The notes below the pieces were generated by a model that searched no databases, was not told where the DNA came from, and worked only from the letters and a program-made list of their open reading frames with translations. Below, one piece after another: positions 6,403 to 21,552 of a stretch of DNA of 47,329 bases (within the stretch, counting starts at the first letter, position 1; each line of letters opens with the position of its first letter). Position numbers and translations under genes: made by a program. This DNA comes from an uncultured bacterium (GTDB lineage Bacteria > Bacillota > Clostridia > Lachnospirales > Lachnospiraceae): contig CANSLJ010000028.1 of the NCBI GenBank assembly GCA_947647735.1, positions 1 to 47,329 on the forward strand, in the 5' to 3' direction.

Positions 6403-6438
6403 AGAGGTGTCAAATAAAACAACAGGGAGGTAAATGGA

Positions 6439-7767: not shown

Positions 7768-7860
7768 GACAGGGATCAAGAGGATATGACAGCGGTGTCA
7801 GAAAAGTGGGGCATCGGGGCACCGCCGGACATATCGTATATATAACAGCAGTGAGCGATG

Positions 7861-7887
7861 GAAGAATGCCCGATCAGGGCATTCTTC
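7861..7887 (+). terminator. Intercistronic hairpin between binding-protein and permease genes
   Basis: A perfect 11-base stem (GAAGAATGCCC at 7861-7871, GGGCATTCTTC at 7877-7887) closes a five-base loop. It has only a weak T run after it, so partial termination or protection of the upstream message is likelier than a full stop. It stands where importers commonly set binding protein above permease level. Confidence 0.6.
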
Positions 7888-7923
7888 TTACACCATAGGA
7901 AAAGAAAGAGGATGGTGGCTTGA

Positions 7924-8811
7924 ATGGGGGCAAACATATATAAAAATAAAAAACCGCTGACCGTATTTTTACTGCCGGCATTTTTATTTATCATAGTCTA
8001 TCTGTACTATCCGTTTTTTATGAATGTCATAAACAGTTTCCGGAAGATCAAGACACTGGGGCAGATGCAGGCACAGTGGAATGATCCCTGGTATACCAAT
8101 TATGTGGAACTGTTTCACGATCCGGTGGTGGGGATATCCCTCAGGAATACGCTGATCATGATGGTCGTGACGATCATAGGGCAGGTAGGTATTGCATTGA
8201 TCCTGGCGCTTCTGGTGGATAATATCAAGACCGGGGCAAAATTTTTCCGTACCGTTTATTTTTTCCCGATCGTCATTTCAGCGACGGCGCTGGGGCTTTT
8301 GTTCAATCTGATCTTTTTGTACGACAAGGGGATGCTGAACCAGTTTCTGGAGAGCATGGGGAAGACATCGCTGACGGACTGGAAAAGTGAGGGAATCGCG
8401 CTCTTTACCATGATGCTGCCGGTCATGTGGCAGTATGTGGGCTTTTATTTTGTGATCCTGATCACGGGGCTGAACAATATTTCGGAGGAGCTTTACGAGT
8501 CGGCGGCGATCGACGGGGCGACACGTTTTCAGCGGGTAAAATATATTTCCATACCGCTTCTGCACAATGTGATCTGCACCTGTGTGGTGCTGGCGGTGAC
8601 GGGGGCGCTGAAAGTGTTCGATCTGCCCTGGACCATGTTCCCCAACGGCATGCCTTTAAAGACAACCTTCCTGACAGGGACTTATATGTATTATCAGACG
8701 ATGATAGCGAAGGATGTGGACTACGGTTCCACGCTGGCGATCATGCTGGTGGTGCTGGGGGTTGTGACGTCCCGTATTGTAAACCGGATATTTAAAGAGA
8801 AAGATTACTGA
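7924..8811 (+). CDS. CUT1 sugar ABC permease, MalF/UgpA type
   Basis: The 295-residue protein has six hydrophobic segments, the first near residues 12-32. The EAA coupling loop is in ELYESAAIDGATRFQRVKYI (about 190-210), which docks on the ATPase. It forms the translocation pore with the product of the next gene. The ribosome binding site is poor (AAAGAGGA), and translation may depend on what happens at the upstream hairpin. No ATPase gene occurs in the cluster, so a multitask MsmX/MsiK-like ATPase encoded elsewhere is presumably used, as is common in Firmicutes. Confidence 0.9.
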   Translation: MGANIYKNKKPLTVFLLPAFLFIIVYLYYPFFMNVINSFRKIKTLGQMQAQWNDPWYTNYVELFHDPVVGISLRNTLIMMVVTIIGQVGIALILALLVDNIKTGAKFFRTVYFFPIVISATALGLLFNLIFLYDKGMLNQFLESMGKTSLTDWKSEGIALFTMMLPVMWQYVGFYFVILITGLNNISEELYESAAIDGATRFQRVKYISIPLLHNVICTCVVLAVTGALKVFDLPWTMFPNGMPLKTTFLTGTYMYYQTMIAKDVDYGSTLAIMLVVLGVVTSRIVNRIFKEKDY

Positions 8812-8825
8812 GGGAGGGATGCGGG

Positions 8826-9683
8826 ATGAAAAAGAAAAAATACAGTATATCCTCAGCGCTGATCTATCTGGTGCTGACAGTATGGGCACTGACGACGATC
8901 TATCCGATCCTGTGGGTGGTGCAGAACTCCTTTAAGGCGAAGGATAAGATCCTTTCAGACTCCTTTTCCCTGCCGGTCGGAGATCTGTTCACCCTGGCAA
9001 ATTACAGGCGGGCTTTCGGAAATCTGAATATATTCGGCGCCTACCGGAACAGCATTTTTATCTCCTGTATGGTGGCGCTGGTTGTGGTGGTGCTGGCGGG
9101 GATGGCGTCTTTTGCGCTGGTGCGTTATCAGTTCCGGCTGAGGGGATTTCTGCAGTCGATGGTTGTGGCGGCGATGATGTTTCCGGTGTTTGCGACGATC
9201 ATTCCGGTTTTCCGGATGGAGGCGGGCTGGGGGATCGCCAATACGGACAGCTGGGGACTGACAATGTTGTCGGTTATTTTGCCGCAGATAGCAGGGAATC
9301 TGTCCTTTGCCATTGTGGTACTGACGGGATTTATCCGTGGGCTGCCGCTGGAGCTGGAGGAGGCGGCCTATATGGAAGGGTGCAATGCCTTCCAGATCTT
9401 TTTCAAAGTGGTGGTGCCGCTGACAAAGCCGTCCTTTGCGACAGTGGCGATCTTTTCTTTTCTGTGGAGTTATAACGACCTGTTCACCCAGATGTTTTTC
9501 CTGCGGACAAAGGATATGTGGGCGATCACAAGGCTGTTAAACGAATTGACATCCATGGAAGGGACAAACTATGGACTGATGGCGGCGGCGGTGACGCTGG
9601 TGGTGGTACCGGTGGTCATTGTCTATATTTTCCTGCAGAAGTATATCATTAAAGGCATGACGGCAGGTGCGGTCAAGGGGTGA
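8826..9683 (+). CDS. CUT1 sugar ABC permease, MalG/UgpE type
   Basis: This is the second pore subunit, 285 residues with six membrane segments. The EAA loop is in LELEEAAYMEGCNAFQIFFK at about 175-195, and the end, KYIIKGMTAGAVKG, is the standard C terminus of MalG-type permeases. It lies 14 bases after its partner with GAGGGAGGG in the gap, so the two are cotranslated at similar levels. Confidence 0.92.
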   Translation: MKKKKYSISSALIYLVLTVWALTTIYPILWVVQNSFKAKDKILSDSFSLPVGDLFTLANYRRAFGNLNIFGAYRNSIFISCMVALVVVVLAGMASFALVRYQFRLRGFLQSMVVAAMMFPVFATIIPVFRMEAGWGIANTDSWGLTMLSVILPQIAGNLSFAIVVLTGFIRGLPLELEEAAYMEGCNAFQIFFKVVVPLTKPSFATVAIFSFLWSYNDLFTQMFFLRTKDMWAITRLLNELTSMEGTNYGLMAAAVTLVVVPVVIVYIFLQKYIIKGMTAGAVKG

Positions 9684-9693
9684 GAAGGGTTTC

Positions 9694-10536
9694 ATGTATA
9701 AGGTTGTGATTATTGACGATGAGCCAATCATTGCGGAGGGGCTCGGGAAAAGTGTGGACTGGGGAAAGTTTGGCGCTTCGGTTGCCGGGATTGCTTTTGA
9801 CGGGGAGGAAGGGCTGAAACTGATCCGGGAGATCCGGCCGGATATCGTTTTTACGGATATCAGGATGCCCTGCATGGACGGGCTTACCATGATAGCGGCG
9901 ATCCGGTCGGAGTTCCCTGAAACACAGATCGCCATATTGACGGGATACAGGGATTTTGACTATGCCCAGCGGGCGATCAGCCTGGGGGTCGCGAGGTTTT
10001 TATTAAAGCCCTCTAAGATGGACGAGATCATGGAGGCGCTGGATGCCATGACGGGAAGGCTTTCGGAGCGCAGGAGGGGGACGACGCTGCTTTTCCCGGA
10101 GAGTGGCATGGAAGAGAGGGATGTGCCGGCGGAGGTAAAGCGCGATGGAAAAGCGGAGGAGACGGCGGAGGATAGGGAGCGAAAGGCGTCTGAACAGGAT
10201 CTGCCGGAAAGCGCGGCGGGCAGCTTTCTCGTGAGAAATGCGGTTGCCTATATCGAGGAGCATTGCAGGGAGAAGCTGAAACTGTCGGATGTGGCGGATC
10301 AGGTTTATGTGAGCCAGTGGCATCTGAGCAAACTGTTAAACCGCTATCTGGGGCAGAACTTTTCGGAGATACTGAACGGGGTCCGGATCGAAAAGGCGAA
10401 GGAACTGCTGGAGGATGCCTCCCTGCGGATCGGTGATATCGCGGAGGAGGTCGGATTTTCGGATATGGCACATTTTTCCCGGGTGTTTAAAAAGGTGGTG
10501 GGGATTTCCGCCAATGAATACAGGAATCGTCTGTGA
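9694..10536 (+). CDS. YesN-type response regulator with AraC DNA-binding domain
   Basis: I start the gene at 9694 (MYKVVIIDDEP) behind AGAAGGG, ten bases after the permease stop; the longer reading from 9667 would add nine residues that overlap the permease. The receiver domain has the acidic pair in IIDDE, phospho-acceptor Asp55 in FTDIRMP and Lys105 in LLKP. A charged linker of about 50 residues leads to a two-helix-turn-helix AraC domain filling the last 100 residues (DVADQVYVSQWHLSKLLNR, then IGDIAEEVGFSDMAHFSRVFK). It should be phosphorylated by the kinase at 4608-6347 and activate the importer, most likely at the promoter near 6374-6402. Confidence 0.93.
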   Translation: MYKVVIIDDEPIIAEGLGKSVDWGKFGASVAGIAFDGEEGLKLIREIRPDIVFTDIRMPCMDGLTMIAAIRSEFPETQIAILTGYRDFDYAQRAISLGVARFLLKPSKMDEIMEALDAMTGRLSERRRGTTLLFPESGMEERDVPAEVKRDGKAEETAEDRERKASEQDLPESAAGSFLVRNAVAYIEEHCREKLKLSDVADQVYVSQWHLSKLLNRYLGQNFSEILNGVRIEKAKELLEDASLRIGDIAEEVGFSDMAHFSRVFKKVVGISANEYRNRL

Positions 10537-10558
10537 GAGATAAATGAGAAGTGAGTAT

Positions 10559-10593
10559 TGCGGTATGGCTGTGGGGCTGTACCGCAGTTTTTT
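10559..10593 (+). terminator. Terminator of the sugar operon (repeat copy A)
   Basis: TGCGGTA at 10559-10565 pairs with TACCGCA at 10580-10586 and is followed by GTTTTTT. Apart from three or four loop bases it matches the terminator at 21348-21384. Confidence 0.85.
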
Positions 10594-10637
10594 GTTGGAG
10601 ACATTTATTAAGCAGTAATCGTGCAAAAACACATAAA

Positions 10638-10647
10638 TGTAAACGAT
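10638..10647 (+). promoter_or_regulatory. Candidate LacI-type half operator
   Basis: TGTAAACGAT matches the left half and CG centre of the operators at 14220-14233 and 20104-20117, but the right arm is not palindromic. It is about 120 bases upstream of the promoter at 10762-10789 and could be an auxiliary site. Confidence 0.35.
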
Positions 10648-10761
10648 ATTAGTATTAAACAGGCAATAAATAGAGGGCTTTGCATCTGTAAAAGAGTATA
10701 ATTGTTTATATTTAACAAATATAATGGAGAAAATATGTAATAAATAACCAATAAAATTGAC

Positions 10762-10789
10762 TTGACATAAAAAATATGTTAGCTATAAT
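10762..10789 (+). promoter_or_regulatory. Sigma-A-type promoter of the first M24 gene
   Basis: A perfect -35 TTGACA (10762-10767) and a perfect -10 TATAAT (10784-10789) are 16 bases apart in AT-rich DNA. The start of transcription would fall near 10796, just before the operator-like sequence at 10801-10824. Confidence 0.8.
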
Positions 10790-10800
10790 TAAAATATAAA

Positions 10801-10824
10801 AAGAAACGTTTACATTTTGTAAAC
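10801..10824 (+). promoter_or_regulatory. Operator region over the start of transcription
   Basis: AAACGTTTACA (10804-10814) carries the same CG-centred half site as the operators at 14220 and 20104. GTTTACA (10808-10814) is repeated inverted as TGTAAAC at 10818-10824 with three T between. The site directly follows the promoter and precedes the ribosome binding site, the usual place for a LacI-family repressor. Confidence 0.65.
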
Positions 10825-10845
10825 AAGAAAAGGAGGAAATGAGAT

Positions 10846-12018
10846 ATGTCATATTACAACATGGAGGAAACAGGCAAAAGGCTGGCGAATGTCCGGAAGT
10901 TATTAAAAGAAAAAAATCTGGATGCGGCACTGATCTATTATGACGAAGTAAACATTGCTGATGGCTGGTATTTGACAGGCTGGTGTCCTCAGTTTGAGAA
11001 AGGAGCAGTACTGGTGCCTGTGAATGGGGAAGCAATGCTTTTGGGGGGACCGGAATCAGAGCCTTTTGCCAAAATGTCCAGCGCTATTACAGAGACAAGA
11101 TGTTTTGTTCCGTTTATGGTGCCGGAGGAAGAGTATCCGAATGCGACGATCAGCACATTCGAAACATTATTTGATGAACTGGCAGAGAAAGGTATCACTT
11201 TTAAGAGAGTGGGTATTGTAGGAACCAGTTATTTCCCGTATTCCGTGTATGTGCAGTTCCAGGCGGGATTTAAAGGCGTTGAGCTGGTGGATATCACGGA
11301 TGATTATGATAAATTCCGATATGTTAAGAGTCCATGGGAAATCGAAAATATCCGCAAGGCATTTTCTTTTACCTATGATTCTTTCCTGGCGATGCAGAAA
11401 AAGGTTGCTCCGGGGGCAACTGAAATAGAAGTGGCGGCAGAAGGAGAATATGTATCCAGAAGACAAAATGCAAATAATTTTGCTTTTTCCTGTATGGTTG
11501 GATCAGGACCTCAGACAAATGCAGTGGTTCCGACAGCGACAAACCGTATCATGCAGGCAGGAGAACTGGTAATGCTTGGCCTTGCCCCAAGATATAACGG
11601 ATATGCGGGCGTAATGGGTGAGACGCTTCCGGTCAGTGGAGAATATACACAGGCTCAGAAAGATGTTCTGAATGTGATCAGGGAAACATACCGGGCGACC
11701 AGAGATATGTTGAAACCCGGATACAGTGGAAAACAGATTGATGTAGTTGGCGCCAAAATCTTCGAGAAACATGGGCTGACACCTTATATTGTATGTCCGT
11801 TCCTGCATACGATCGGTTTGATGGAAGCTGAGAGGCCGTTCTTTGGTCCTAATGGAACAGATGAATTAGTACCCGGTATGACTGTTTCTGTAGATATCAG
11901 TTTCTTCGGACATCCGGTACATCACGGCGTGAGAATCGAGACAGGCTTCCTGATCACAGAAGATGGATATGAGGCGTTGTCACCGGAAATGGATGCAAGA
12001 TTGAGCGCTGAACTGTAG
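10846..12018 (+). CDS. Creatinase-fold M24-family protein A, metal site degenerate
   Basis: The 390 residues have the two-domain layout of creatinase/prolidase proteins: an N-terminal domain to about residue 160 (LDAALIYYDEVNIADGWYLTG) and a pita-bread domain. Active M24 peptidases hold two metals with Asp, Asp, His, Glu, Glu. Here the aligned residues are Gly245, Val256, His321, Asp350 and Glu365, so both aspartates are gone. Creatinase itself works without metal, but its catalytic histidine is not obvious here either. A dipeptidase role is therefore unlikely; hydrolysis of a small C-N bonded compound or a binding role is possible. A closely similar copy lies at 20133-21320. The start is fixed by AGGAGG five to ten bases upstream. 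Confidence 0.8.
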   Translation: MSYYNMEETGKRLANVRKLLKEKNLDAALIYYDEVNIADGWYLTGWCPQFEKGAVLVPVNGEAMLLGGPESEPFAKMSSAITETRCFVPFMVPEEEYPNATISTFETLFDELAEKGITFKRVGIVGTSYFPYSVYVQFQAGFKGVELVDITDDYDKFRYVKSPWEIENIRKAFSFTYDSFLAMQKKVAPGATEIEVAAEGEYVSRRQNANNFAFSCMVGSGPQTNAVVPTATNRIMQAGELVMLGLAPRYNGYAGVMGETLPVSGEYTQAQKDVLNVIRETYRATRDMLKPGYSGKQIDVVGAKIFEKHGLTPYIVCPFLHTIGLMEAERPFFGPNGTDELVPGMTVSVDISFFGHPVHHGVRIETGFLITEDGYEALSPEMDARLSAEL

Positions 12019-12032
12019 AGAGGAGAAGTAGA

Positions 12033-12395
12033 ATGAGTTACGGAAAAAAAGTATGGATTTTTGTGGATGGTGACCTGCCGCCTCAGGGGGATATTGAACC
12101 CTTTGGACATGAGGCTCTGAGTATAACGAATTGTAATGATGAGGATGCGGTGATCAAGACCATAGTTTATTTTTCTGACAGGGAGCCGGATGAACTGGAA
12201 CTTGTGGTGCCTGCCCGCAGGGTAAACTGTCTGCGCCTGGATTATCCGATCGGTGAGGCAAACTATCAAATACCGATGGGACAATATTCCCTCTGCCTGA
12301 TCAGTAATGTTCCGATCGTGGCAGTATTGGGGCGACTGGACCGCCGGAAAGATTTTGCATATTATGAAATGGATGGTTTTGCCTGCGATGCATGA
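12033..12395 (+). CDS. ASRT-like small protein (sensory-rhodopsin-transducer family)
   Basis: This 120-residue protein resembles the Anabaena sensory rhodopsin transducer: GHEALSITNCNDEDAVIKTIVYFSD at 25-49, VPARRVNCLRL at 59-69 and SNVPIVAVLGRLD at 91-103 correspond to its core beta strands. The family forms small beta-sandwich oligomers and has been proposed to bind small molecules, often in carbohydrate-related contexts; no rhodopsin is encoded here. It sits 14 bases after the M24 gene behind AGAGGAGAAG and 16 bases before the acetyltransferase, clearly within one operon. I infer a ligand-binding or sensing role for the compound handled by this module. Family assignment was made by eye from remembered sequence. 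Confidence 0.7.
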   Translation: MSYGKKVWIFVDGDLPPQGDIEPFGHEALSITNCNDEDAVIKTIVYFSDREPDELELVVPARRVNCLRLDYPIGEANYQIPMGQYSLCLISNVPIVAVLGRLDRRKDFAYYEMDGFACDA

Positions 12396-12411
12396 GGCGG
12401 AAGCAAAAATG

Positions 12412-13035
12412 ATGACAGATAGAGAAAAAATGCTGCAGGGGGCATTATATAATCCGGCAGATAAGGAACTGGAAAAGATACGTCTCCACGTACATGCACA
12501 GATTAAAAAATATAATTTGTCGGAGGACACCGAACAGAAGCTGCGACAGGAGATACTGAAGGATATCACGGGCAGCCTTGGAGAGAATGTTACGATACAG
12601 CCGCCAGTTTATTTTGACTATGGAAATCTGTTTATCGGTTCGGACTCTTTTATGAATTTTCGGTTTACGGCGATAGATTGCGCAAAGATTGAAATTGGGG
12701 AGAATGTTTTAATGGGACCCTGCGTAACGCTGGCGACAGCTATGCATCCGATGCTGGCAGAGGAAAGAAAAACAAAGTGCCATCCGGACGGGAATATTTA
12801 TGGAATAGAGTATGCGCTGCCAATTCGGATCGCCGACCATGTGTGGGTCGGCAGCAATGTGGTTGTTTTGCCGGGAGTCTGTATAGGCAAAGGGGCTGTG
12901 ATCGGGGCGGGGAGTGTGGTGACAAAAGACATTCCAGCCGGTGTACTCGCAGTCGGGAATCCCTGCCGTGTGGTCCGGGAGCTGACAGAGGCTGATAGTA
13001 TGAGATGGAATACCAGAGTTAGCAATAGCTGTTAA
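12412..13035 (+). CDS. Hexapeptide O-acetyltransferase (maltose/galactoside acetyltransferase type)
   Basis: I place the start at 12412 (MTDREKMLQG), the normal beginning of Maa/LacA-type enzymes, with TGAGGCGG overlapping the stop codon of the ASRT-like gene as a modest ribosome binding site. An in-frame ATG at 12307 would add an unconserved tail inside the previous gene. The 207 residues comprise a short helical N-terminal domain and a left-handed beta helix of hexapeptide repeats (IEIGENVLMG, IGKGAVIGAGSVVTKDIPAG). The catalytic histidine is in AMHP. Such enzymes transfer acetyl from acetyl-CoA to a sugar hydroxyl. In this operon it may acetylate a non-metabolised or product sugar. Confidence 0.88.
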   Translation: MTDREKMLQGALYNPADKELEKIRLHVHAQIKKYNLSEDTEQKLRQEILKDITGSLGENVTIQPPVYFDYGNLFIGSDSFMNFRFTAIDCAKIEIGENVLMGPCVTLATAMHPMLAEERKTKCHPDGNIYGIEYALPIRIADHVWVGSNVVVLPGVCIGKGAVIGAGSVVTKDIPAGVLAVGNPCRVVRELTEADSMRWNTRVSNSC

Positions 13036-13110
13036 TTTACTTTTGGAACTTGGGATGTTATGATATAAAAATAGCGGAATATTTTTAGAAGATAAGGTGG
13101 CAGAAATAAC

Positions 13111-14154
13111 ATGGCAAGTTCATTAAAAGTAATCGCTGCGAAATATAAGGTTTCTGTATCGACATTGTCCAAGGTGATCAATGATCAGGACGGCATAAGA
13201 CCCGAAACGAGGCAGCGGATACTCGAAATTTTACAAAAAGAAAATTATATACCCAACAATATTGCCAGATCGCTCAGGAAAAACAGTACCGGCATTATAG
13301 GAGTTATTATCCCGGATATTAAACAGCAGTTTTTTAATATGATCACCAGAGGAATAGAGAAACATATTTCAGAAGAAGGATATCTGATATTACTTTCTGA
13401 TACGGAAGAAAGTCCGGAAAAGGAAGAGAAGTATCTGGAGCTGATGTTTCGTCAGTGTGTGGACGCTTTGGTTGTGGCAACGGTCGATGCAAAACATATT
13501 GATCTGCAGAAAATATACAATATGGGAATCCCTGTGGTATTTATTGACACAATTCCGGAAACTGATCTGTGTATGGATGCAGTTCTGGTTGATGATTATT
13601 TAATTGGTGAGAAAATTGCAAGGCACCTGTTGCAGCTTGGGCATAAAGAAATAGCAGCGATCACCGGTAATGCGGAGGATTCCACGCCGAGTGTCAGACG
13701 TTTGGAGGGACTTGTAGAAACATGCAAAAAGGGCGGTTGTCCGATATCGGAGAAGTTGATCTGTAAAGCCGGATATGAGGAAAGGCATGGATATGAGGCG
13801 ATGCAGAAGCTGCTGCGATGCAGGGATAAACATAATTTTACAGCAGTTGCAGTGATGCATGAACTGATAGCCATTGGTGCGATAAAGGCGATTCGTGAAC
13901 AGGGACTGAAGATAGGGGAAGATATTTCTTTGATCGGATGCGATTTAAATGAACGGGTTCAGCTATCTTCACCGCAGATCACTAATGTAAGACAGCCGGA
14001 GCAGGAAATAGGCCGAATGGTGGCAGATTTACTTTTGCAGAGACTGGAGCAGAAAAGGATGGGAGGGACAGAGGAAATGTTACAGAATATCGGCCATAAG
14101 ATTCTGCTGTCTCCTATCATGGATATACGGGAAAGCTGTAAAAAACTGGAGTAA
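13111..14154 (+). CDS. LacI-family transcription regulator A
   Basis: An N-terminal helix-turn-helix (SLKVIAAKYKVSVSTLSKVIN, residues 4-24) and hinge helix (NNIARSLRKNST) precede a periplasmic-binding-protein-like ligand domain of about 280 residues. The 347 residues are normal length. It is strongly similar to the regulator at 19017-20063, for example in HELxAIGAxKAIREQ and EDISLIGCDLNER. Recognition-helix residues are nearly the same (VSVST against ISVAT), so both probably bind the same operators. AAGGTGG precedes the ATG, and an extended -10 (TG-A-TATAAA, 13061-13069) suggests its own promoter. The ligand is unknown. Confidence 0.93.
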   Translation: MASSLKVIAAKYKVSVSTLSKVINDQDGIRPETRQRILEILQKENYIPNNIARSLRKNSTGIIGVIIPDIKQQFFNMITRGIEKHISEEGYLILLSDTEESPEKEEKYLELMFRQCVDALVVATVDAKHIDLQKIYNMGIPVVFIDTIPETDLCMDAVLVDDYLIGEKIARHLLQLGHKEIAAITGNAEDSTPSVRRLEGLVETCKKGGCPISEKLICKAGYEERHGYEAMQKLLRCRDKHNFTAVAVMHELIAIGAIKAIREQGLKIGEDISLIGCDLNERVQLSSPQITNVRQPEQEIGRMVADLLLQRLEQKRMGGTEEMLQNIGHKILLSPIMDIRESCKKLE

Positions 14155-14181
14155 AAAGTGAACTGATTATTTATCCGGCCA

Positions 14182-14187
14182 TATAAT
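14182..14187 (+). promoter_or_regulatory. Possible -10 of the CUT2 importer operon
   Basis: TATAAT stands about 130 bases before the binding-protein gene and 32 bases before the operator at 14220. The -35 region (GTGAAC, 14158-14163) is poor, so an activator or another promoter may be involved. Confidence 0.4.
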
Positions 14188-14219
14188 TTATGTGCAACGC
14201 GGCAATGATTACCTAAAAA

Positions 14220-14233
14220 TGTAATCGTTTACA
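14220..14233 (+). promoter_or_regulatory. LacI-type operator before the CUT2 importer
   Basis: TGTAATCGTTTACA is a 14-base palindrome around CG with one mismatched pair. It is the best copy of the motif shared by three genes of this module. Confidence 0.7.
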
Positions 14234-14317
14234 AAAAATGGAAATAAAATGATCTGAAATATGAATGCAGAAGCAGCATTTATATAAAATTTATGTTTCA
14301 CAAAAGGAGGAAAGCTA

Positions 14318-15379
14318 ATGAGAAAGAGAACAAGCAGTACAGTGAAAAAAATGATATCTATGATTCTTGCAGTGCTTATGATTGCAGGACTTATGGGTTG
14401 CGGAGCTTCACCGGCAACGCAGCAGAATGCGGAAGAGGCTTCCACGCAGGAAACAGCGGAACCTGCAGAAAGCTCTGCTGTGGAAGAGAGCACGGCAGGA
14501 AGTGAGGAGACGTCCGGCCAGACAAAGATCTTTTTTACAAATGCGATACTGACAGCTCCATACTGTGCACTGCAGTTGGATGCTATGCAGCAGTATGCAA
14601 CGGCAAACAATATCGACCTTCAGGTTGCCGATGGTAAAGAGGACGCACAGACACAGCTTGATCAGATCAAGAATGCGGTGACGCAGGGCGTGGATGGTAT
14701 CATCTACTTCCCGGGGGATGAAGCTTCTACGATTCCGGTTGTACGTTATCTGGATGAGAGCGGAGTTCCGTTTATTGTATTAAATTCTAAAGTAGATGAG
14801 TCTGTTCGTGATCTGGTTCCAAGCTATGTTGGTTCTGACTACGAAGAAATGGGTAAAATGGCAGGAGAGCTTGCGCTGGATGCATTGGGGGATGAAGGCG
14901 GAAATATTGTTATCATCAACGGACTTTCCGGTACAGAAGTTGCTAACTCTACAACCAAAGGCTTTATGGATGTGATCGGTACAAATTCCAATATTGAGAT
15001 ACTGGCGGATCAGCCGGCAGACTGGGATACCGCAAAAGCAATGACGATCATGGAAGATTACATTACGACCTTCGGAGATAAGATAGACCTGGTATTTGCA
15101 GTGGACAGCGGTATGACAAAGGGCGCAGCACAGGCACTGGAAAATGCGGGCCTCTGGGGTGAGATACCTGTGGTCTGTTCCGATCAGGGGCAGTTTGTAT
15201 TGGATGCGATCGCAAATGGAGAAATGAAAGGAACAGCAAAGCAGGATGCTGTTGACGAAGGAAACCTTGCAATGGAGACGATCATGAAGCTTGTGAATGG
15301 TGAAGCAGTCGAGACATGGGAGATCGTTCCGACAGAGATGCTTACTGTTGACAACATAGAAGGCTTGAAGGGCTATTGA
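14318..15379 (+). CDS. CUT2-family (RbsB-like) binding lipoprotein
   Basis: The start at 14318 follows an AAAGGAGGAAAGC site. The first 28 residues are a lipoprotein signal with lipobox LMGC, and an Ala/Glu/Ser-rich spacer to about residue 67 tethers the protein to the membrane. The rest is a Peripla_BP_4 fold (KIFFTNAILTAPYCALQLDAMQQYA at the start, VDGIIYFPGDEASTIPVVRYL, VFAVDSGMTKGAAQAL). CUT2 binding proteins take monosaccharides, autoinducer-2 or other small polar molecules rather than oligosaccharides. The ligand cannot be read. It heads an operon with one ATPase and two permeases. Confidence 0.92.
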   Translation: MRKRTSSTVKKMISMILAVLMIAGLMGCGASPATQQNAEEASTQETAEPAESSAVEESTAGSEETSGQTKIFFTNAILTAPYCALQLDAMQQYATANNIDLQVADGKEDAQTQLDQIKNAVTQGVDGIIYFPGDEASTIPVVRYLDESGVPFIVLNSKVDESVRDLVPSYVGSDYEEMGKMAGELALDALGDEGGNIVIINGLSGTEVANSTTKGFMDVIGTNSNIEILADQPADWDTAKAMTIMEDYITTFGDKIDLVFAVDSGMTKGAAQALENAGLWGEIPVVCSDQGQFVLDAIANGEMKGTAKQDAVDEGNLAMETIMKLVNGEAVETWEIVPTEMLTVDNIEGLKGY

Positions 15380-15417
15380 TCACGACAGTATGACAGGAAA
15401 CAGTAAATAATAAGATT

Positions 15418-15450
15418 GGATGTTTCTGCCGGATGCCGGTGGAAACATCC
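15418..15450 (+). terminator. Intercistronic hairpin after the CUT2 binding-protein gene
   Basis: GGATGTTTC (15418-15426) pairs with GAAACATCC (15442-15450), and inner CCGG arms extend the stem. A weak GTCTTT follows. As at 7861-7887, partial termination or message protection would keep binding protein above ATPase and permease level. Confidence 0.6.
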
Positions 15451-15485
15451 GTCTTTAAAACCGCCTGACGGTTAGGAGAGGAAAA

Positions 15486-16976
15486 ATGAGTGAAATAGCT
15501 TTAGAAATGAGAAATATTACAAAAACATTTCCCGGCGTCAAAGCACTGAATCAGGTGTGTTTTCAGGTGAAAAAAGGTGAAGTACATGCGATCGTCGGAG
15601 AAAACGGCGCAGGAAAGTCTACATTGATGAAGGTGTTAAATGGTGTATATCAAGCGGATTCAGGGCAGATATTTTTAGAGGGAAAAGAAGTAAAGATTGA
15701 AAATATCAATAAAGCACAGGAACTGGGTATCAGCCTGATCTTTCAGGAAACTAATCTGATTCCGCAGCTTTCGGTAGCCGAGAATTTCTTTCTGGGAAAG
15801 CTTCCGAAAACAAAGGTGGGACTCGTGAACTGGAAATATATGGAAGAACAGGTGACTTCTATTTTTTCTCAACTCAATTATAAGATCAAACCTAAAGAGG
15901 TTGTGGTCAATCTGAGTGCGGCGGATAAACAGATGGTGGAAATAGCCCGGGCAATCTCTCGAAATGCTAAGATCATTATAATGGATGAGCCTACATCATC
16001 GCTGACGGATGTGGAGGTTGAGAATCTGTTTTCCATCATAAATGATCTGAAGAAAAAAGGTACGACGATCATTTTTATCTCTCATAAAATGGAGGAAATT
16101 TTTACTATAGCAGATACAGTTTCCATACAGAGAGATGGAGAAATGATTCATACGGCGCCCATAACTGGCTTGACCAGTGATCAGATTGTTGAATGGATGG
16201 TAGGACGCAGTGTGGATACGGAGTTCCCGGCCAGGGAAAGCAAGATCGGAGAAGTTGTGCTTGAGGCGAAAAAAGTATGCCGAAAAAATCTGATCTATGA
16301 TGTGGACTTTTCGCTGCATAAGGGGGAAGTGCTCGGTTTTGCAGGGCTTGTGGGAGCGGGAAGAACGGAACTCGCAGAGACGATTTTCGGTGAGGGAAAA
16401 CTAAGCGGTGGAGAAATTTATTTACACGGTAAGAAAGTTTCTATTAAAAATACCACACAGGCGATCAGGCATTCTATTGGTATGTTGACGGAGGAGCGAA
16501 AAGAGACGGGATTGGCGTTGGATGCGTCTGTGAAGAGTAATATAGTGATAGCAAAGCTTTCAAAATTGTGTTTTGGTAAGAATCTTTTCATTAATCGGAA
16601 GGCCGAAAAGGAAGTTGCAGATCAATATGTAAAAGAATTAAAGATAAAAACACCTTCTATCAATCAGACTGCCTATAATCTTTCCGGTGGAAACCAGCAG
16701 AAGATCGTTATTGCAAAATGGCTGTTTTCGGATGCGGATATTCTGATCTTTGATGAACCTACCCGGGGAATCGATGTGGGAGCAAAACATGAGATTTATA
16801 ATATCATGAATGATCTCGTCAGCAAAGGAAAGTCCATTATATTTATTTCCTCGGAACTGCCGGAACTGATGGGAATGAGTGACCGTATCATCGTGATGCA
16901 TGAAGGACATAAAAAAGGGGAACTGCTCAGAGAAGAGTTTTCCTCCGAAGGCATCATGAAGCTTGCGGTAAGTTAG
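15486..16976 (+). CDS. CUT2 sugar ABC ATPase with two nucleotide domains (RbsA/MglA type)
   Basis: The 496 residues hold two ABC domains. The first has Walker A GENGAGKST, a variant signature NLSAADKQMVEIARA and Walker B IIIMDEPTSSL. The second has the degenerate Walker A GLVGAGRTE that typifies the C-terminal half of this family, signature LSGGNQQK and Walker B ILIFDEPTRGID. It energises import through the two permeases that follow. The start is preceded by TTAGGAGAGG. It belongs to the operon headed by the gene at 14318. Confidence 0.95.
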   Translation: MSEIALEMRNITKTFPGVKALNQVCFQVKKGEVHAIVGENGAGKSTLMKVLNGVYQADSGQIFLEGKEVKIENINKAQELGISLIFQETNLIPQLSVAENFFLGKLPKTKVGLVNWKYMEEQVTSIFSQLNYKIKPKEVVVNLSAADKQMVEIARAISRNAKIIIMDEPTSSLTDVEVENLFSIINDLKKKGTTIIFISHKMEEIFTIADTVSIQRDGEMIHTAPITGLTSDQIVEWMVGRSVDTEFPARESKIGEVVLEAKKVCRKNLIYDVDFSLHKGEVLGFAGLVGAGRTELAETIFGEGKLSGGEIYLHGKKVSIKNTTQAIRHSIGMLTEERKETGLALDASVKSNIVIAKLSKLCFGKNLFINRKAEKEVADQYVKELKIKTPSINQTAYNLSGGNQQKIVIAKWLFSDADILIFDEPTRGIDVGAKHEIYNIMNDLVSKGKSIIFISSELPELMGMSDRIIVMHEGHKKGELLREEFSSEGIMKLAVS

Positions 16977-16986
16977 GAGGTACGGT

Positions 16987-17967
16987 ATGACTGAAAAAGG
17001 AAAAAAGCTGGACATTGTACAAGTTCTGCTGAATTATGGCTTGATCATAGCTTTATGCATTATTATTGTTATTGTTTCTATCAGTACGGAGAATTTTCTG
17101 ACAGTCAGAAATATTATTAATATTCTGCGTCAGGTGGCACCTACCGGAATCATGGCGTTGGGGGTTGTGGCTGTTATTGTCGCGGGACACATGGATCTGT
17201 CTATTTCTTCCACGGTTACGATGTCGGGAGTAGTCTGTGTTTCCTATGTGAAATATCTTCAGGCGGATGTGAAGGGTATCTGTCTCGCACTGCTGACAGG
17301 CGCAGGGATCGGATTGTTAAATGGCGCTATTATCGCCAATATCACGAGTAAAAAGGGAAGAAAAGGCGAGAGTTTTATCATTACCTACGGAATGCAGGCT
17401 GCGATTGCAGCGGCAGCGCTGCTTTATACAAACGGAATTTATATGAATCTGCAGGAGAAGTCCTTGCACAGTTTTTTCGGAAAGGGATATGTACCGATCA
17501 TAATATTTGTTCTTACGACGGTGATCCTGGAATACGTGATGAAATGCACACCGTTCGGACAATCCATTTATTACATTGGTTCAAACGAGGCGGCAGCCCG
17601 TATGTCAGGAATCAATGTAAAAAGAAACACGATGATCATCTTTACGATTTCCGGTTTTTTTGCGGCCGTGGCCGGCGTTGTCCTGACATCAAGGGTCGGT
17701 GCGGCTTCGAGCACGTCCGGAAATGGCTTGGAATTGGATGCTATAGCAGCAGTAGTTGTGGGTGGAACAGCTCTTTCAGGTGGTAAAGGCGGCGTGATGA
17801 AAACGGTGCTTGGTGTGATCGTTATGGGAGTTTTATCAAATGCCCTGCGTCTTTTAAATATTGATACCTATCCCCAGATGATGATAAGAGGTGTCATTAT
17901 CATTCTGGCGGTGCTGCTGGATGTATTTGCGACACAGTTCAAGGCAAAAGGAGGTGCAAAGGCATGA
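16987..17967 (+). CDS. CUT2 ABC permease 1 (RbsC-like)
   Basis: The protein has 326 residues with eight or more hydrophobic segments and the BPD_transp_2 pattern (TGIMALGVVAVIVAGHMDLSISS near residue 60, LDAIAAVVVGGTALSGGKG near 255). It begins ten bases after the ATPase gene, which ends in AGGAGG, and overlaps the next permease by four bases. Two different permease genes imply a heterodimeric pore rather than the homodimer of ribose systems. Confidence 0.93.
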   Translation: MTEKGKKLDIVQVLLNYGLIIALCIIIVIVSISTENFLTVRNIINILRQVAPTGIMALGVVAVIVAGHMDLSISSTVTMSGVVCVSYVKYLQADVKGICLALLTGAGIGLLNGAIIANITSKKGRKGESFIITYGMQAAIAAAALLYTNGIYMNLQEKSLHSFFGKGYVPIIIFVLTTVILEYVMKCTPFGQSIYYIGSNEAAARMSGINVKRNTMIIFTISGFFAAVAGVVLTSRVGAASSTSGNGLELDAIAAVVVGGTALSGGKGGVMKTVLGVIVMGVLSNALRLLNIDTYPQMMIRGVIIILAVLLDVFATQFKAKGGAKA

Positions 17968-18917
17968 CACAGAAAAAACGAATCTTTGAAGTGAATATGC
18001 TGGCCAGGCAGATGGTACCGATCGTGCTTGTAGTTATGGTGGTATTGTTCTCCGCTTTTATACCGAATTTTTGTACGGTCAACAATATTGTTAATATCTT
18101 TTCAAGTTTTTCGGTGTATGGCGTAGTGACGATTGCCATGGCGTTTGCTTTGATCTGTGGTGAATTTGATCTGTCAGTGGGGAGCACAATGGCCTTATCT
18201 TCGCTGATCTTTGCCACATTGGTTAATGAAAAGTCTTTTATTATTGCGGCTGTGGCAGCGCTGTTGACGGGAGCTGTTGTCGGGGCGTTAAATGGATTTT
18301 TGGTCTCAAAATTTAATATTCCTTCTTTTGTGGTGACCATGGGAATGCAGATTACTGTGAAAGGAGTAGCCTGTCTTTATACGGATGCGAAACCTGTTGC
18401 GATTTACAGTGATTTTTGTTATCAGATTGGAAATGGAACATTGCTTGGGATTCCCTATCTGGTATGGCTTTTCTTTCTGATCCTGTTTCTGGCGGGAGGT
18501 GTGTTGAAATATACTAGTTTTGGCAGAGGTTTATATGCTGTTGGTGGAAACTATCTGATGGCGAAAAATGCGGGGATCAATGCACCGATCTATAAGTTTA
18601 TGATTTTCTTTATTCTGGGAATCGCCTCATCACTGGGGGGCATTATGATGGCTTGTCGTATATCGGCGGGGAACGCTCTGTATGGAACGGATCTGACTAT
18701 GGCGGCTATTTCCGCTAATGTGGTAGGTGGAACCAGTACGGTAGGCGGGACGGGAAATATCTGGAAAACATTGCTTGGCCTGATCGTTCTTTATGTGTTA
18801 TATAATGCGTTGATGCTGCTGGGGATACAGGCCTATGTACAGCAGTTGATCAAGGGTCTGATAGTGATCATTGTTATTGTTGTAGATGGATTGAGCCGTG
18901 TGGCAAACGAAAACTGA
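17964..18917 (+). CDS. CUT2 ABC permease 2
   Basis: This second BPD_transp_2 permease has 317 residues, with the motifs ALICGEFDLSVGSTMALSS near residue 70 and MAAISANVVGGTSTVGGTG near 250. The ATGA overlap with permease 1 and AAGGAGGTG upstream imply coupled translation. The C terminus (VIIVIVVDGLSRVANEN) is as expected for the family. No terminator is obvious in the 99 bases after it, so the regulator gene downstream may receive readthrough. Confidence 0.93.
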   Translation: MTQKKRIFEVNMLARQMVPIVLVVMVVLFSAFIPNFCTVNNIVNIFSSFSVYGVVTIAMAFALICGEFDLSVGSTMALSSLIFATLVNEKSFIIAAVAALLTGAVVGALNGFLVSKFNIPSFVVTMGMQITVKGVACLYTDAKPVAIYSDFCYQIGNGTLLGIPYLVWLFFLILFLAGGVLKYTSFGRGLYAVGGNYLMAKNAGINAPIYKFMIFFILGIASSLGGIMMACRISAGNALYGTDLTMAAISANVVGGTSTVGGTGNIWKTLLGLIVLYVLYNALMLLGIQAYVQQLIKGLIVIIVIVVDGLSRVANEN

Positions 18918-18968
18918 GAGAGTTTGGCAAAAGAGTATTGTTTTAATGATTTTTTTGCATTAGATTTA

Positions 18969-18977
18969 TGCTATAAT
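18969..18977 (+). promoter_or_regulatory. Extended -10 promoter of the second LacI gene
   Basis: TG-C-TATAAT forms an extended -10, 39 bases before the start codon. There is no convincing -35, which extended -10 promoters can lack. Confidence 0.55.
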
Positions 18978-19016
18978 ATCCGAGAAACAGAAATTTGATA
19001 TGAGAAGGGTACCACT

Positions 19017-20063
19017 ATGGAAAAATCATTAAAAAAAATTGCTGAAACTTATAATATCTCAGTCGCAACACTTTCGCGAGTAGTAAACAATAAAGGGAAT
19101 GTGCGTCCTGAGACAAAGGAGCGGGTGCTTGAGATATTAAAGAAGGAACAATATGTGCCTAATTATATGGCCAGATCCTTAAAGACAAACAGCAGCACAA
19201 CGATTGGGATCATAGTACCTGATATCAGTCAAAAATTATTTGCGGGTATTATACGAGGGATCAACCGAAAGCTGTTTGAGAGTGGTTATCTGGTTTTATT
19301 GTCCGATTCGGAGGAAAGTGCACAGAAAGAAAAGCGATATCTGGATCTGATGCTGAGACAGTGTGTGGATGGATTGGTGATTGCTACGGTAGATCCCGAA
19401 CATATAGACTTTCGGCGGTTTTATGCACTGGGGATTCCGGTGGTATTCATTGATACGATCCCGGATACAGATCTGCAGGTTGATGCCGTATTGGTGGATG
19501 ATTATATGGTTGGTCAGAAGATGGCAAAACATTTTATACAGGAGGGGCATACAAAAACTGTGGTGCTGACCGGTACCTCCAGCGGATTTTCTCCCAGTGT
19601 ACAGAGGTTGAAGGGATTTTTAGATACCTATGAAAAGTATGGTACATCCATACCAAAAGATATGATATACAAATTGCCCTACGATCAGGAAGAGAGTTAT
19701 CAGGTGGTAAAAAAACTGATAAATAAACGGGATGCCAGGCCGTTTACATCGATCGCAGCTATGCATGAACTGATGGCGATCGGGGCGGTCAAAGCAATCA
19801 GGGAACAGAATTTGATGATCGGAGAAGATATTTCTCTGATAGGCTGCGATTTAAATGAAAGGATTCAGTTATTTAAACCTCAGATCACAGGGGTGGAGCA
19901 GCCGGAAGAGGAAATCGGGGAGACAGTGGCGGGGCTTTTGCTGCAACGCCTGCGTCAGAAGATGGCAGAGGGAGCGGATGCAATGAGGGAGAGCATGGGA
20001 CAGAAAATCCTGTTAAATCCTCGTTTTGTTATCCGCGATAGCTGCAAAAACCTAAAAAAGTAG
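19017..20063 (+). CDS. LacI-family transcription regulator B
   Basis: This 348-residue paralogue of the regulator at 13111 has the helix-turn-helix SLKKIAETYNISVATLSRVVN (4-24), hinge NYMARSLKTNSS and the same sugar-binding core. Blocks shared almost word for word, such as VVFIDTIP-TDL and DAVLVDDY, indicate a recent common ancestor and probably related effectors. AGAAGGG precedes the ATG. The gene is followed 69 bases later by the second M24 gene, with an operator in the gap that it or its twin should bind. Confidence 0.93.
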   Translation: MEKSLKKIAETYNISVATLSRVVNNKGNVRPETKERVLEILKKEQYVPNYMARSLKTNSSTTIGIIVPDISQKLFAGIIRGINRKLFESGYLVLLSDSEESAQKEKRYLDLMLRQCVDGLVIATVDPEHIDFRRFYALGIPVVFIDTIPDTDLQVDAVLVDDYMVGQKMAKHFIQEGHTKTVVLTGTSSGFSPSVQRLKGFLDTYEKYGTSIPKDMIYKLPYDQEESYQVVKKLINKRDARPFTSIAAMHELMAIGAVKAIREQNLMIGEDISLIGCDLNERIQLFKPQITGVEQPEEEIGETVAGLLLQRLRQKMAEGADAMRESMGQKILLNPRFVIRDSCKNLKK

Positions 20064-20103
20064 TACTATTTTATAGAAGGAAAGAGAGTATTACATCAAA
20101 AAA

Positions 20104-20117
20104 TGAAAACGTTTACA
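20104..20117 (+). promoter_or_regulatory. LacI-type operator overlapping the M24-B leader
   Basis: TGAAAACGTTTACA is a CG-centred palindrome with one mismatched pair and touches the GAGGAGG ribosome binding site. Its position so close to the start codon would suit a repressor acting as a roadblock. Confidence 0.65.
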
Positions 20118-20132
20118 GAGGAGGTAGATAAG

Positions 20133-21320
20133 ATGTCATTTTATAATATGAAGGAAACGGATATACGTATTGGGAAGATCAGAGAACTGTTGGAAAATAA
20201 AAAGCTTGATGCGGCACTGATTTATTATGATATGGTGAATATTGCAAACGGGTGGTATTTAACCGGATGGTGTCCACAGTTTGAGTATGGCGCAGTTCTT
20301 GTGCCGCTGCGGGGAGAGCCTTTGCTTCTGGGAGGTTCTGAGAGTGAAGAATTTGCAAAACAGGATTCTGCGATTAAGAATACAAGAAATTTCAGTGTAT
20401 TTATGCAGCCTGGAATAGAATTTCTGAATTCTAAAATGTATGATTTTGAGGAATTAAATAAAGAATTATCAGCGTCGGGAACAACGCTGAAGAGAATTGG
20501 ATTTGTGGCGCCAGATAAGATGCCGACAAAGTTATACCGTGATTTTTGTGCCGGATTTGAGGGAATTGAGATTGTTGACATTACTTTTGATTTTGAACTG
20601 CTTCGTCTGGTAAAATCCTCCTGGGAGTTGTCCTGTATGGAGAAAGCCAATACACTTGCAGATGCAGCTTATGATGCAATGATAAAAACCATAAAACCGG
20701 GAGTTTCTGAACTTCAGGTTGCTGCGGCAGGAGAGTATGCGGCAAGATGGAATGGAGCAAGTGGTTATGGATTTGATACGATCATTGCATCCGGAAAACG
20801 TGTGGAGGGAATCGTATCTACGCCTGTTGATAAAATATTACAGGATGGTGAGATGATCATGTTCGGTATGGCTCCTCAGTGGTGCGGGTATACAGGAACG
20901 TTTGGTGATACAGTACCTGTATCCGGGGAGTATACGAAAGAACAGCGCGATATGATGAATGCCATGCGCCATGCGCTTCAGCTTTGCAAGGAAAAACTGT
21001 ATCCGGGTGAAAAACCGGTTGATATTGATAAGGTGGGGATGGACTATCTTAGAAAACTTGGATATGGGGATTATCTGGTAGCACAGTTTGCTCATTCCAC
21101 CGGTTTGATGGAGTGTGAGGGGGCAAGCTATACTACTTATGACTGCTGCGATGGCGGTATGCCCCTGGAGCCGGGGATGACGATCATGATTGATGTCAGT
21201 ATGTTTAAAATACCGGGAGTGATCGGCGGCAGGATTGAAACAGGGTATCGTATCACAGAAAACGGGCCGGTTGCTCTATCTCCTAAGATGGATCAGCTTT
21301 TTGCAACGGAAATTAAATAG
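20133..21320 (+). CDS. Creatinase-fold M24-family protein B, metal site degenerate
   Basis: I place the start at 20133 (MSFYNMKETD), because it matches the start of the paralogue at 10846 and has GAGGAGG at a proper distance; ATG 20103 would put ten extra residues over the operator. The product has 395 residues. In the first 50 positions 36 match protein A. The metal-ligand positions read Gly245, Thr256, His321, Asp354 and Glu369, so the two aspartates required by M24 peptidases are lost, as in A. The substrate-side residues differ between the copies (for example QWCGYTGTFGDT against RYNGYAGVMGET), which suggests related but different substrates or a heteromer. The gene ends the module. Confidence 0.8.
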   Translation: MSFYNMKETDIRIGKIRELLENKKLDAALIYYDMVNIANGWYLTGWCPQFEYGAVLVPLRGEPLLLGGSESEEFAKQDSAIKNTRNFSVFMQPGIEFLNSKMYDFEELNKELSASGTTLKRIGFVAPDKMPTKLYRDFCAGFEGIEIVDITFDFELLRLVKSSWELSCMEKANTLADAAYDAMIKTIKPGVSELQVAAAGEYAARWNGASGYGFDTIIASGKRVEGIVSTPVDKILQDGEMIMFGMAPQWCGYTGTFGDTVPVSGEYTKEQRDMMNAMRHALQLCKEKLYPGEKPVDIDKVGMDYLRKLGYGDYLVAQFAHSTGLMECEGASYTTYDCCDGGMPLEPGMTIMIDVSMFKIPGVIGGRIETGYRITENGPVALSPKMDQLFATEIK

Positions 21321-21347
21321 AAAAGAGAGAAGCATCATGACAGGAAC

Positions 21348-21384
21348 TGCGGTATGGCATATGGGGGCTGTACCGCAGTTTTTT
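21348..21384 (+). terminator. Terminator of the M24-B gene (repeat copy B)
   Basis: TGCGGTA pairs with TACCGCA and is followed by GTTTTTT. It shares the first 11 and last 21 bases with the terminator at 10559-10593, differing only in the loop. Confidence 0.85.
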
Positions 21385-21470
21385 ATGTGCAGTTATCTTA
21401 TCTGACGATATTTGGAAGAGGATTTTCTGATGATTTTTGCGGAGGAAGAAAATTTCCTGCGTAATATATG

Positions 21471-21530
21471 TTGACAAATAATATTATACGAGATATAGTA
21501 TTGATATAATATTATACGCCATATAATATT
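21471..21530 (+). promoter_or_regulatory. Promoter with two tandem palindromic operators of the PadR operon
   Basis: -35 TTGACA (21471-21476) and -10 TATAGT (21494-21499) are 17 bases apart. Two 25-base copies (21478-21502, 21506-21530; three differences) follow. Each is a palindrome with arms AATATTATA and TATAATATT around five bases (8 of 9 pairs in the first copy, 9 of 9 in the second). The first copy covers the -10. This fits autorepression by the PadR protein encoded next. Confidence 0.75.
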
Positions 21531-21552
21531 ATAGATTACAACAGGAGGTAAG

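What the first reader, a model, noticed from the sequence alone, without database searches (positions are those of the whole stretch)
10600..21390. Self-contained module: two creatinase-fold proteins, an ASRT-like protein, an acetyltransferase, a CUT2 importer and twin LacI regulators
All genes run the same way, are more AT-rich by eye than the DNA before 10.5 kb, and share operator motifs. CUT2 importers carry small polar ligands, LacI proteins sense the same kind of ligand, and ASRT-like proteins are proposed small-molecule binders. No kinase, isomerase or aldolase of a normal sugar pathway is present; the only candidate catabolic enzymes are the M24-like pair and the acetyltransferase. I infer a route for a compound with a sugar-like moiety and a C-N bond. 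This is the best candidate here for an undescribed system.
Basis: partly seen in the sequence, partly recalled or inferred. Interest (0 to 1): 0.8.

Follow-up and report, generated by a model that had tools for sequence, protein, structure and literature searches.

The report
Sugar-importer operon with metal-free peptidase relatives
A bacterium related to gut clostridia carries a self-contained set of genes that seems to import an unidentified sugar-like compound and process it with relatives of peptidases that have lost their metal site, and cousins of this set occur in several distant bacterial groups.

Summary
Ten same-strand genes at 10.85-21.32 kb encode two M24/creatinase-fold proteins, an ASRT (PF07100) protein, a maltose-type acetyltransferase, a complete CUT2 importer and two LacI repressors. 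A congener lacks exactly this block, so it behaves as a unit. The M24 proteins cannot be usual M24 peptidases: both Asp metal ligands and both catalytic His of prolidase are replaced, while a new set of acids plus one His is invariant in 33 aligned sequences. The combination is conserved beyond close relatives. In sampled Lachnospiraceae, 14 of 20 other ASRT loci have such an M24 within 5 kb; M24 with ASRT also occurs in Oscillospiraceae, Kiritimatiellota, Spirochaetota and Atribacterota. M24-linked ASRTs form nearly one clade with a changed ligand pocket, and in three genomes ASRT is fused to the acetyltransferase. Related modules add creatininase, MlrC, rhamnose-mutarotase, sugar-kinase, aldolase or hydroxyproline-type genes. 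Best reading: uptake and metal-free first-step processing of a sugar-like, probably nitrogen-bearing compound. Substrate and reaction are inferred. The absence of kinase and aldolase holds for this operon, not for the family: the same genome's second module has them. The papers searched did not describe the M24-ASRT link.

The parts
10846..12018 (+). M24A: creatinase/prolidase-fold protein without the two Asp metal ligands
12033..12395 (+). ASRT-like protein (PF07100), GHExxS variant of the pocket signature
   Evidence: 69.2 bits against cut-off 25; matches 2ii7 and 1nc7; clade
12409..13035 (+). MAT: maltose/galactoside-type hexapeptide acetyltransferase; start chosen by position and RBS-like GAGGCGG
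   Evidence: PF12464 Mac and PF00132; start region
13111..14154 (+). LacI1 repressor
   Evidence: PF00356 plus Peripla_BP
14318..15379 (+). CUT2 solute-binding protein (lipobox by eye), RbsB-like but with the Asp-Arg sugar pair of RbsB (recalled) replaced by Asn-Ser
   Evidence: PF13407 184.9 bits; alignment to 7e7m; pocket segments
15486..16976 (+). CUT2 double ATPase
   Evidence: PF00005, two stretches; xylose/arabinose/multiple-sugar/ribose ATPases best, below cut-offs
16987..17967 (+). CUT2 permease A
   Evidence: PF02653
17964..18917 (+). CUT2 permease B
   Evidence: PF02653
19017..20063 (+). LacI2 repressor, 57% identical to LacI1
20133..21320 (+). M24B, 47% identical to M24A, same lost Asp ligands and same invariant residues
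   Evidence: start by RBS
10762..10789 (+). promoter match TTGACA-16-TATAAT, 12 of 12, before M24A
10801..10824 (.). operator-like AAACGTTTACATTTTGTAAAC (10804-10824) just after the promoter
   Evidence: CGTTTACA kept in L023 and L024 by eye
14220..14233 (.). operator-like TGTAATCGTTTACA before the binding-protein gene
20104..20117 (.). operator-like TGAAAACGTTTACA before M24B
   Evidence: kept in L023, not in L024
10557..10593 (+). terminator-like hairpin before the module; its last 21 nt recur after the module
21348..21384 (+). similar GC-rich inverted repeat with T run after M24B, sharing 21 identical nt with the first
   Evidence: not listed by the terminator scan

Best explanation
A repressible operon for taking up a sugar-like solute and doing the first processing step. 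The CUT2 importer brings the compound in. It, or a product, releases the twin LacI repressors from operators before M24A, the binding-protein gene and M24B. The two M24 proteins, metal-free pita-bread enzymes as creatinase is (recalled), carry out the first cytoplasmic step, most likely hydrolysis of a C-N link, freeing a sugar that is finished off by kinases and aldolases encoded elsewhere. The ASRT protein, of a clade specialised for M24 partners, binds the same ligand and acts with M24 or the acetyltransferase; the acetyltransferase caps surplus or unusable ligand as LacA does. Shown here: gene content, unit behaviour, conservation of the set, loss of metal ligands, invariant new residues, the ASRT clade and fusion, operator positions. 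Inferred: ligand, reaction, which protein binds the operators, role of ASRT and of acetylation.
For: Families. Empty site. 14 of 20 other ASRT loci above cut-off in the Lachnospiraceae sample have such an M24 within 5 kb. In the genus, M24s of this group (19 genes, 6 of 9 genomes) lie at 12 loci; all 12 have at least one CUT2 gene beside them (L142, cut at its edge, shows only the binding-protein gene) and 7 of 12 have ASRT. Metal ligands D209, D220 and catalytic H192, H291 of prolidase replaced; E51, E70, H321, E327, E329, E365 invariant in 33 of 33. Fold like creatinase and ectoine hydrolase over full length. Creatininase cluster in 7 M24 loci (next to M24 or ASRT in 5) and MlrC cluster in 8 (next to M24 in 5). 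MAT-ASRT fusion in three genomes. M24-linked ASRT: 0 of 29 with the pocket Cys against 11 of 16 unlinked, and nearly one clade.
Against: No substrate is known. The residue aligned with prolidase H192 (equivalent to creatinase's catalytic His, recalled) is Val here, so a creatinase mechanism cannot be carried over. Binding-protein pockets differ widely between modules, so modules may serve different ligands. 5 of the 12 genus loci have no ASRT; L031 and L032 show no ASRT in 21 kb although each genome has one elsewhere. The pairing is rare outside Lachnospiraceae in the phylum sample (1 of 12 fetched loci). No dedicated downstream enzymes in this operon.
Confidence: 0.42

Rival explanations
1. 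The M24 proteins are not hydrolases but sugar isomerases, epimerases or lyases with a rebuilt metal site (His321, Asp350, Glu365 plus Glu327/Glu329); they stand in for the isomerase of the RhaA-type ASRT operons.
For: ASRT operons come in a RhaA type (RhaA + AKR, mostly with FGGY kinase) and an M24 type. M24-type loci L025, L042 (= L083) and L071 share the FGGY kinase cluster with RhaA-type loci, and no M24-linked locus has a member of the RhaA cluster; RhaM mutarotase sits in M24-type loci. Invariant acids and His remain.
Against: No pita-bread isomerase is known to me (recalled). L025 has an AP_endonuc_2 isomerase-like gene (by cluster) as well as M24.
Confidence: 0.2
2. The compound is a conjugate of a sugar with proline or hydroxyproline; M24A splits the bond at the ring nitrogen, as its prolidase ancestors did, and the halves go to sugar kinases and to imino-acid catabolism.
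For: M24A lies among Pyr_redox and DHDPS genes in L025, L026, L027 and L042, with 2Fe-2S genes in L025, L026, L042, a DAO gene in L026, L027, L042, and a proline-racemase gene with both catalytic Cys in L025, L026, L042; MAT-ASRT or ASRT is present in all four and an FGGY kinase in L025 and L042.
Against: The window operon and most others lack imino-acid genes; proline racemase and 4-hydroxyproline epimerase models stay below their cut-offs (363.5 of 556, 294.3 of 376).
Confidence: 0.15
3. The M24 proteins are non-catalytic: ligand-binding regulators or scaffolds that work with ASRT and the LacI pair.
For: Metal ligands and catalytic His lost; pita-bread proteins without enzyme role exist (SPT16 matches the fold; its role is recalled).
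Against: A strict invariant set of acids and one His in the catalytic domain is more than a scaffold needs; then the operon would hold no catabolic enzyme at all.
Confidence: 0.12
4. An ordinary ribose- or rhamnose-type uptake operon with peptidases as passengers.
For: RbsB/RbsR-like scores; ASRT with monosaccharide ABC genes is described (PMC2739507, parts 1 and 2 of 3 read).
Against: Conserved pairing, ASRT clade, no canonical metal site, equivalog cut-offs not reached.
Confidence: 0.05

Closest known systems
ASRT with monosaccharide ABC transporter operons (De Souza, Iyer and Aravind 2009, PMC2739507)
   Same: ASRT gene joined to a monosaccharide ABC importer; ASRT proposed as sugar sensor
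   Different: Partners named in the parts read are isomerase, aldolase, kinase and other sugar enzymes; the main text has no hit for words starting with M24, creatinase, peptidase or acetyltransferase, though it names an inactive zincin-like metallopeptidase beside another, cell-surface ASRAH family. Its supplement was not seen. The ASRT here lacks the pocket Cys of their SHExxC signature.
Creatinase (PDB 1chm, 7yto)
   Different: The position of the catalytic His (recalled equivalence) is Val; the invariant Glu51/Glu70/Glu327 set marks this group; no other creatine gene in the module
Ectoine hydrolase DoeA/EutD (6yo9)
   Different: 77.9 bits against cut-off 575; no doeB-type gene in the module; invariant residues differ
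Xaa-Pro dipeptidase / aminopeptidase P (1pv9, 1wy2, 5cnx)
   Same: Best sequence and fold matches
   Different: Three of five metal ligands and both catalytic His changed
LacA/Maa acetyltransferases
   Same: Mac and hexapeptide domains, placed in a sugar-uptake operon with LacI genes
   Different: 161 bits against cut-off 347 for LacA; fused to ASRT in sister modules

Membership tests
M24 metallopeptidase (prolidase / aminopeptidase P) | five metal ligands Asp, Asp, His, Glu, Glu | tested here: not met
   D209->Gly245, D220->Val256, E313->Asp350; H284->His321 and E327->Glu365 kept
M24 metallopeptidase (prolidase / aminopeptidase P) | catalytic His 192 and His 291 (prolidase numbering) | tested here: not met
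   Val228 and Ala328
Pita-bread (creatinase/M24) fold | two-domain fold over the full length | tested here: met
Creatinase (EC 3.5.3.3) | catalytic His 232 (its equivalence to prolidase His192 is recalled) | tested here: inconclusive
   Val228 in M24A and no His in that column in the 49 rows, by eye; but rows of the L071 subclade have a His two columns earlier, and no creatinase sequence was aligned residue by residue here
Creatinase (EC 3.5.3.3) | hydrolyses creatine | not testable with these tools
   needs an assay
Ectoine hydrolase DoeA | NCBIfam equivalog score | tested here: not met
   46.2 of 613 and 77.9 of 575 bits for M24A
ASRT (PF07100) | Pfam gathering score 25 bits | tested here: met
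   69.2 bits
ASRT-like family of De Souza 2009 | SHExxCxxN pocket signature | tested here: not met
   GHEALSITN: His and Asn kept, the leading Ser is Gly, Cys is Ser
CUT2 importer | Peripla_BP_4 binding protein, double-ABC ATPase, BPD_transp_2 permeases | tested here: met
ASRT sugar operon of De Souza 2009 | sugar isomerase, aldolase and kinase in the operon | tested here: not met
   none among the ten genes; kinases and an aldolase are in the second module L071
RbsR / other named LacI equivalogs | NCBIfam cut-off | tested here: not met
   best 205 and 207 bits against 382

The most novel reading that the evidence does not exclude
M24, ASRT and a sugar importer form an undescribed, diversified class of catabolic modules. 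Their M24 subfamily is a metal-free pita-bread carbohydrate enzyme (splitting sugar-amine or sugar-imino-acid conjugates), and a whole ASRT clade is its dedicated ligand-binding partner, which would give ASRT proteins a first enzyme partner outside rhodopsin sensing.
Probability: 0.3. Interest if true: 0.75.

Novelty: new variant of a known kind. Interest (0 to 1): 0.56.

Why it matters
ASRT proteins have had a proposed sugar-sensing role since 2009 but few concrete partners. A clade of them that travels with one M24 subfamily, and is fused to an acetyltransferase, gives a testable partner set. It also flags a group of proteins that family searches call Xaa-Pro peptidase relatives, that cannot be peptidases of the usual kind and that sit in sugar operons, so present annotation may hide a catabolic route. 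If M24 here cleaves sugar-nitrogen bonds, it would be a new activity for the pita-bread fold and a new way for gut bacteria to use dietary or plant conjugates.

Tried and rejected
Usual M24 peptidase role: rejected on the lost metal ligands and His. Ectoine hydrolase: rejected on cut-offs and residues. Creatinase itself: not supported, but not aligned residue by residue. Plasmid carriage: tblastn of M24A against 72,556 plasmid records gave 510 records; the 25 listed rows are at 28.3% identity or less and all records are under 60%, so no close relative was seen there. Chance operators: the count alone is not significant. Ribose as ligand: the Asp-Arg pair of RbsB (recalled) is Asn-Ser here, which lowers but does not exclude it. 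One ligand for all modules: binding-protein pockets differ.

Results against wide conservation: M24A at E 1e-60 or better in the order: 1 of 196 genomes, the window's own. ASRT in the Spirochaetota sample: 1 of 198 genomes. ASRT in the phylum sample: 20 of 398 genomes; of its 19 new loci I fetched wide DNA for 12 and 1 of 12 (L097) has the M24; one other (L098) is cut by its contig end. L031 and L032 lack ASRT within 21 kb.

Family names of clusters (creatininase, MlrC, RhaM, kinases and so on) rest on Pfam scans of one representative each plus BLAST clustering, except where a protein is named. PadR, response-regulator, two-component and CUT1 labels for window genes outside the module are by eye on translations.

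Literature: ten searches. ASRT with M24 (21), M24 family with creatininase and sugar operon (34) and two more gene-context queries (82, 87) gave 0 papers. PMC2739507: parts 1 and 2 of 3 and a term search read; supplement not seen. All other papers: listing only. Creatinase mechanism, CcpA cre consensus and RbsB pocket residues are recalled.

Dropped rows: the M24 table kept proteins of 331-459 aa only, which leaves out among others the partial L044 and L048 and the over-long L028 copy. The ASRT count dropped 5 duplicates and missed L076. Fisher p 4e-7 ignores relatedness.
Full report
What is there. The window carries ten co-directional genes at 10846-21320: M24A, ASRT, a maltose-type acetyltransferase (MAT), LacI1, a CUT2 importer (binding protein, ATPase, two permeases), LacI2, M24B. 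Pfam assigns each above its cut-off; no NCBIfam cut-off is reached in the rows shown. M24B most likely starts at 20133 and MAT near 12409. M24A and M24B are 47% identical, LacI1 and LacI2 57%, and DNA repeats of 125 and 147 nt at 71-73% link the two lacI genes, so the LacI2-M24B pair probably arose by duplication (inference).

The block is a unit. In congener G184 (L134) the matches to the window's 10203-10527 (end of the upstream gene, a response regulator by eye) and 21470-21533 (before a PadR-like gene, by eye) lie 112 nt apart, with no module between. In two other relatives (L130, same contig as L023; L131, same contig as L024) the module stands before the same PadR-like gene, while the window's 4.6-10.7 kb (L130) or 0.65-10.7 kb (L131) is missing. 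In G1086 (L129) the match goes from window 4581 to 21227 within 21 nt, leaving only the last 94 bases of M24B, which looks like a deletion. GC-rich inverted repeats with a T run, sharing 21 identical bases, stand on both sides of the module; the terminator scan lists only the first. I noticed no integrase-like ORF by eye in 8.5-24 kb but did not search for one.

Control. A 12-of-12 sigma-A promoter match (10762-10789) precedes M24A, with an operator-like AAACGTTTACATTTTGTAAAC at 10804-10824; further sites stand before the binding-protein gene and before M24B. The number of sites is within chance (21 of 100 shuffles reach it). The binding-protein site is kept in L023 and L024, the M24B site in L023 only, and CGTTTACA follows the M24A promoter in both by eye. 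The motif also suits CcpA (recalled).

Conservation of the set. The window's family is Lachnospiraceae by inference: congener contigs equal in length and sequence to the Clostridium symbiosum and Lachnospiraceae records L023 and L024. PF07100 is in 15 of 299 genomes of the family sample, 14 above the cut-off, the window's own included. Of the 20 loci above the cut-off other than the window's, 14 have an M24 of this group within 5 kb (L070, L071, L073, L074, L076-L085; 9 genomes with the own one), four are RhaA-type (L068, L069, L072, L075) and two ADH-type (L086, L087). From the other side, of 26 loci found with M24A in one genome scan 15 hold ASRT within the fetched DNA; six of the 11 others (L037, L039, L040, L044, L045, L048) are under 7 kb long, while L031 and L032 lack ASRT over 21 kb, although their genomes carry one elsewhere. 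The 15 come from Bacillota, Kiritimatiellota (L033, 3.5 kb apart), Spirochaetota (L047), Atribacterota (L038) and one unclassified record (L025). L047 has M24, ASRT and CUT2 together. In the window's genus, 19 M24 genes of this group lie at 12 loci in 6 of 9 genomes; 12 of 12 loci have at least one CUT2 gene beside them (L142 only the binding-protein gene, at its edge), 7 of 12 ASRT, and tandem M24 pairs occur. In the window's own genome the 3 strong matches to this M24 group lie in the two ASRT-bearing modules, while the two weaker M24 matches are on other contigs. With 5 M24 matches in 4.1 Mb a chance neighbour within 5 kb would be expected at about 1 locus in 70 (my estimate).

ASRT. M24-linked ASRTs have HE..[MIVST] where the known signature is SHE..C: 0 of 29 distinct linked sequences have the Cys, 11 of 16 unlinked do (p ignores relatedness). 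In the tree 32 of 33 M24-linked rows form one group with a single unlinked row, L098, whose contig ends 198 bases after its ASRT gene; L038 falls outside on a long branch. Support for the whole group is moderate (88/89), and the label needs 2 changes, not 1. Three genomes (L026, L027, L042) encode MAT and ASRT as one protein of 325-331 aa, MAT first in L042.

What travels with it (cluster members; one representative each scanned). Creatininase (PF02633): next to M24 or ASRT in L073, L076, L078, L079, L080; 3.5-4.4 kb off in L097 and L071; also in L141 and L142. MlrC/M81: next to M24 in L029, L030, L031, L033, L084; within 2.5 kb in L082 and L085; 6.5 kb off in L034. Polysaccharide deacetylase: L038, L039, L040, L043, L046, L048, L097. 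RhaM: L029, L071, L078, L079, and L082. The window genome's second module (L071) holds MAT, flavin reductase, creatininase, RhaM, PfkB kinase, FGGY kinase, class II aldolase, an unassigned 234-aa protein, M24, ASRT, LacI, CUT2. In L025, L026, L027 and L042 M24A lies among Pyr_redox and DHDPS genes, with DAO in three, 2Fe-2S in three, and a proline-racemase gene with both catalytic Cys in three. Sugar genes and C-N chemistry therefore both surround this M24 group, which is the base of the main explanation. It is association, not proof.

Limits. Ligand, reaction, metal content and any M24-ASRT contact are untested. Binding-protein pockets vary between modules, so the modules probably share a chemistry, not one ligand. 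The pairing is rare outside Lachnospiraceae in the sampled phylum (1 of 12 fetched of 19 loci), and close M24A relatives are rare (1 of 196 genomes of the order). The supplement of PMC2739507 was not available and may contain M24 cases.

Noticed in passing
L071 (G000:C9:87300-107200): The same genome has a second M24-ASRT-CUT2 module of another M24 subclade with creatininase, RhaM, two kinases, a class II aldolase, a flavin reductase and an unassigned 234-aa protein.
   Followed up: partly
L042:371-14863, L026, L027, L025: M24A lies among hydroxyproline-type catabolic genes (Pyr_redox, DHDPS, in part DAO, 2Fe-2S and proline racemase); L042 has a Liv-type importer and L026, L027, L042 the MAT-ASRT fusion.
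   Followed up: partly
L129 (G1086): A congener keeps only a match to the last 94 bases of M24B between the upstream gene and the PadR-like gene, a likely scar of module loss.
   Followed up: partly
window 4581-10527: The genes upstream (CUT1-type importer and response regulator, by eye) are a second variable block, present in the window and G184 but absent in L130, L131 and L129.
   Followed up: no
window 21462-21533: The region before the PadR-like gene carries overlapping AT-rich direct and inverted repeats (ATAATATTATA), perhaps its own operator.
   Followed up: no
L139:9194-10540 and L140:9231-10646: A more distant M24 group that shares the Glu51/Glu70/His321/Glu327/Glu329 set sits in CUT2 operons without ASRT; L140 also has a MAT gene.
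   Followed up: partly
L078:4874-6976, with cluster members in L079 and L082: A 700-aa protein with a GH20-type N-terminal domain and weak similarity to O-GlcNAcases lies in three M24-ASRT modules.
   Followed up: partly
L071 subclade of M24 (L071, L073, L074, L076-L080): These M24s carry a conserved His two columns before the lost catalytic His position, so this subclade may have a different catalytic base.
   Followed up: no
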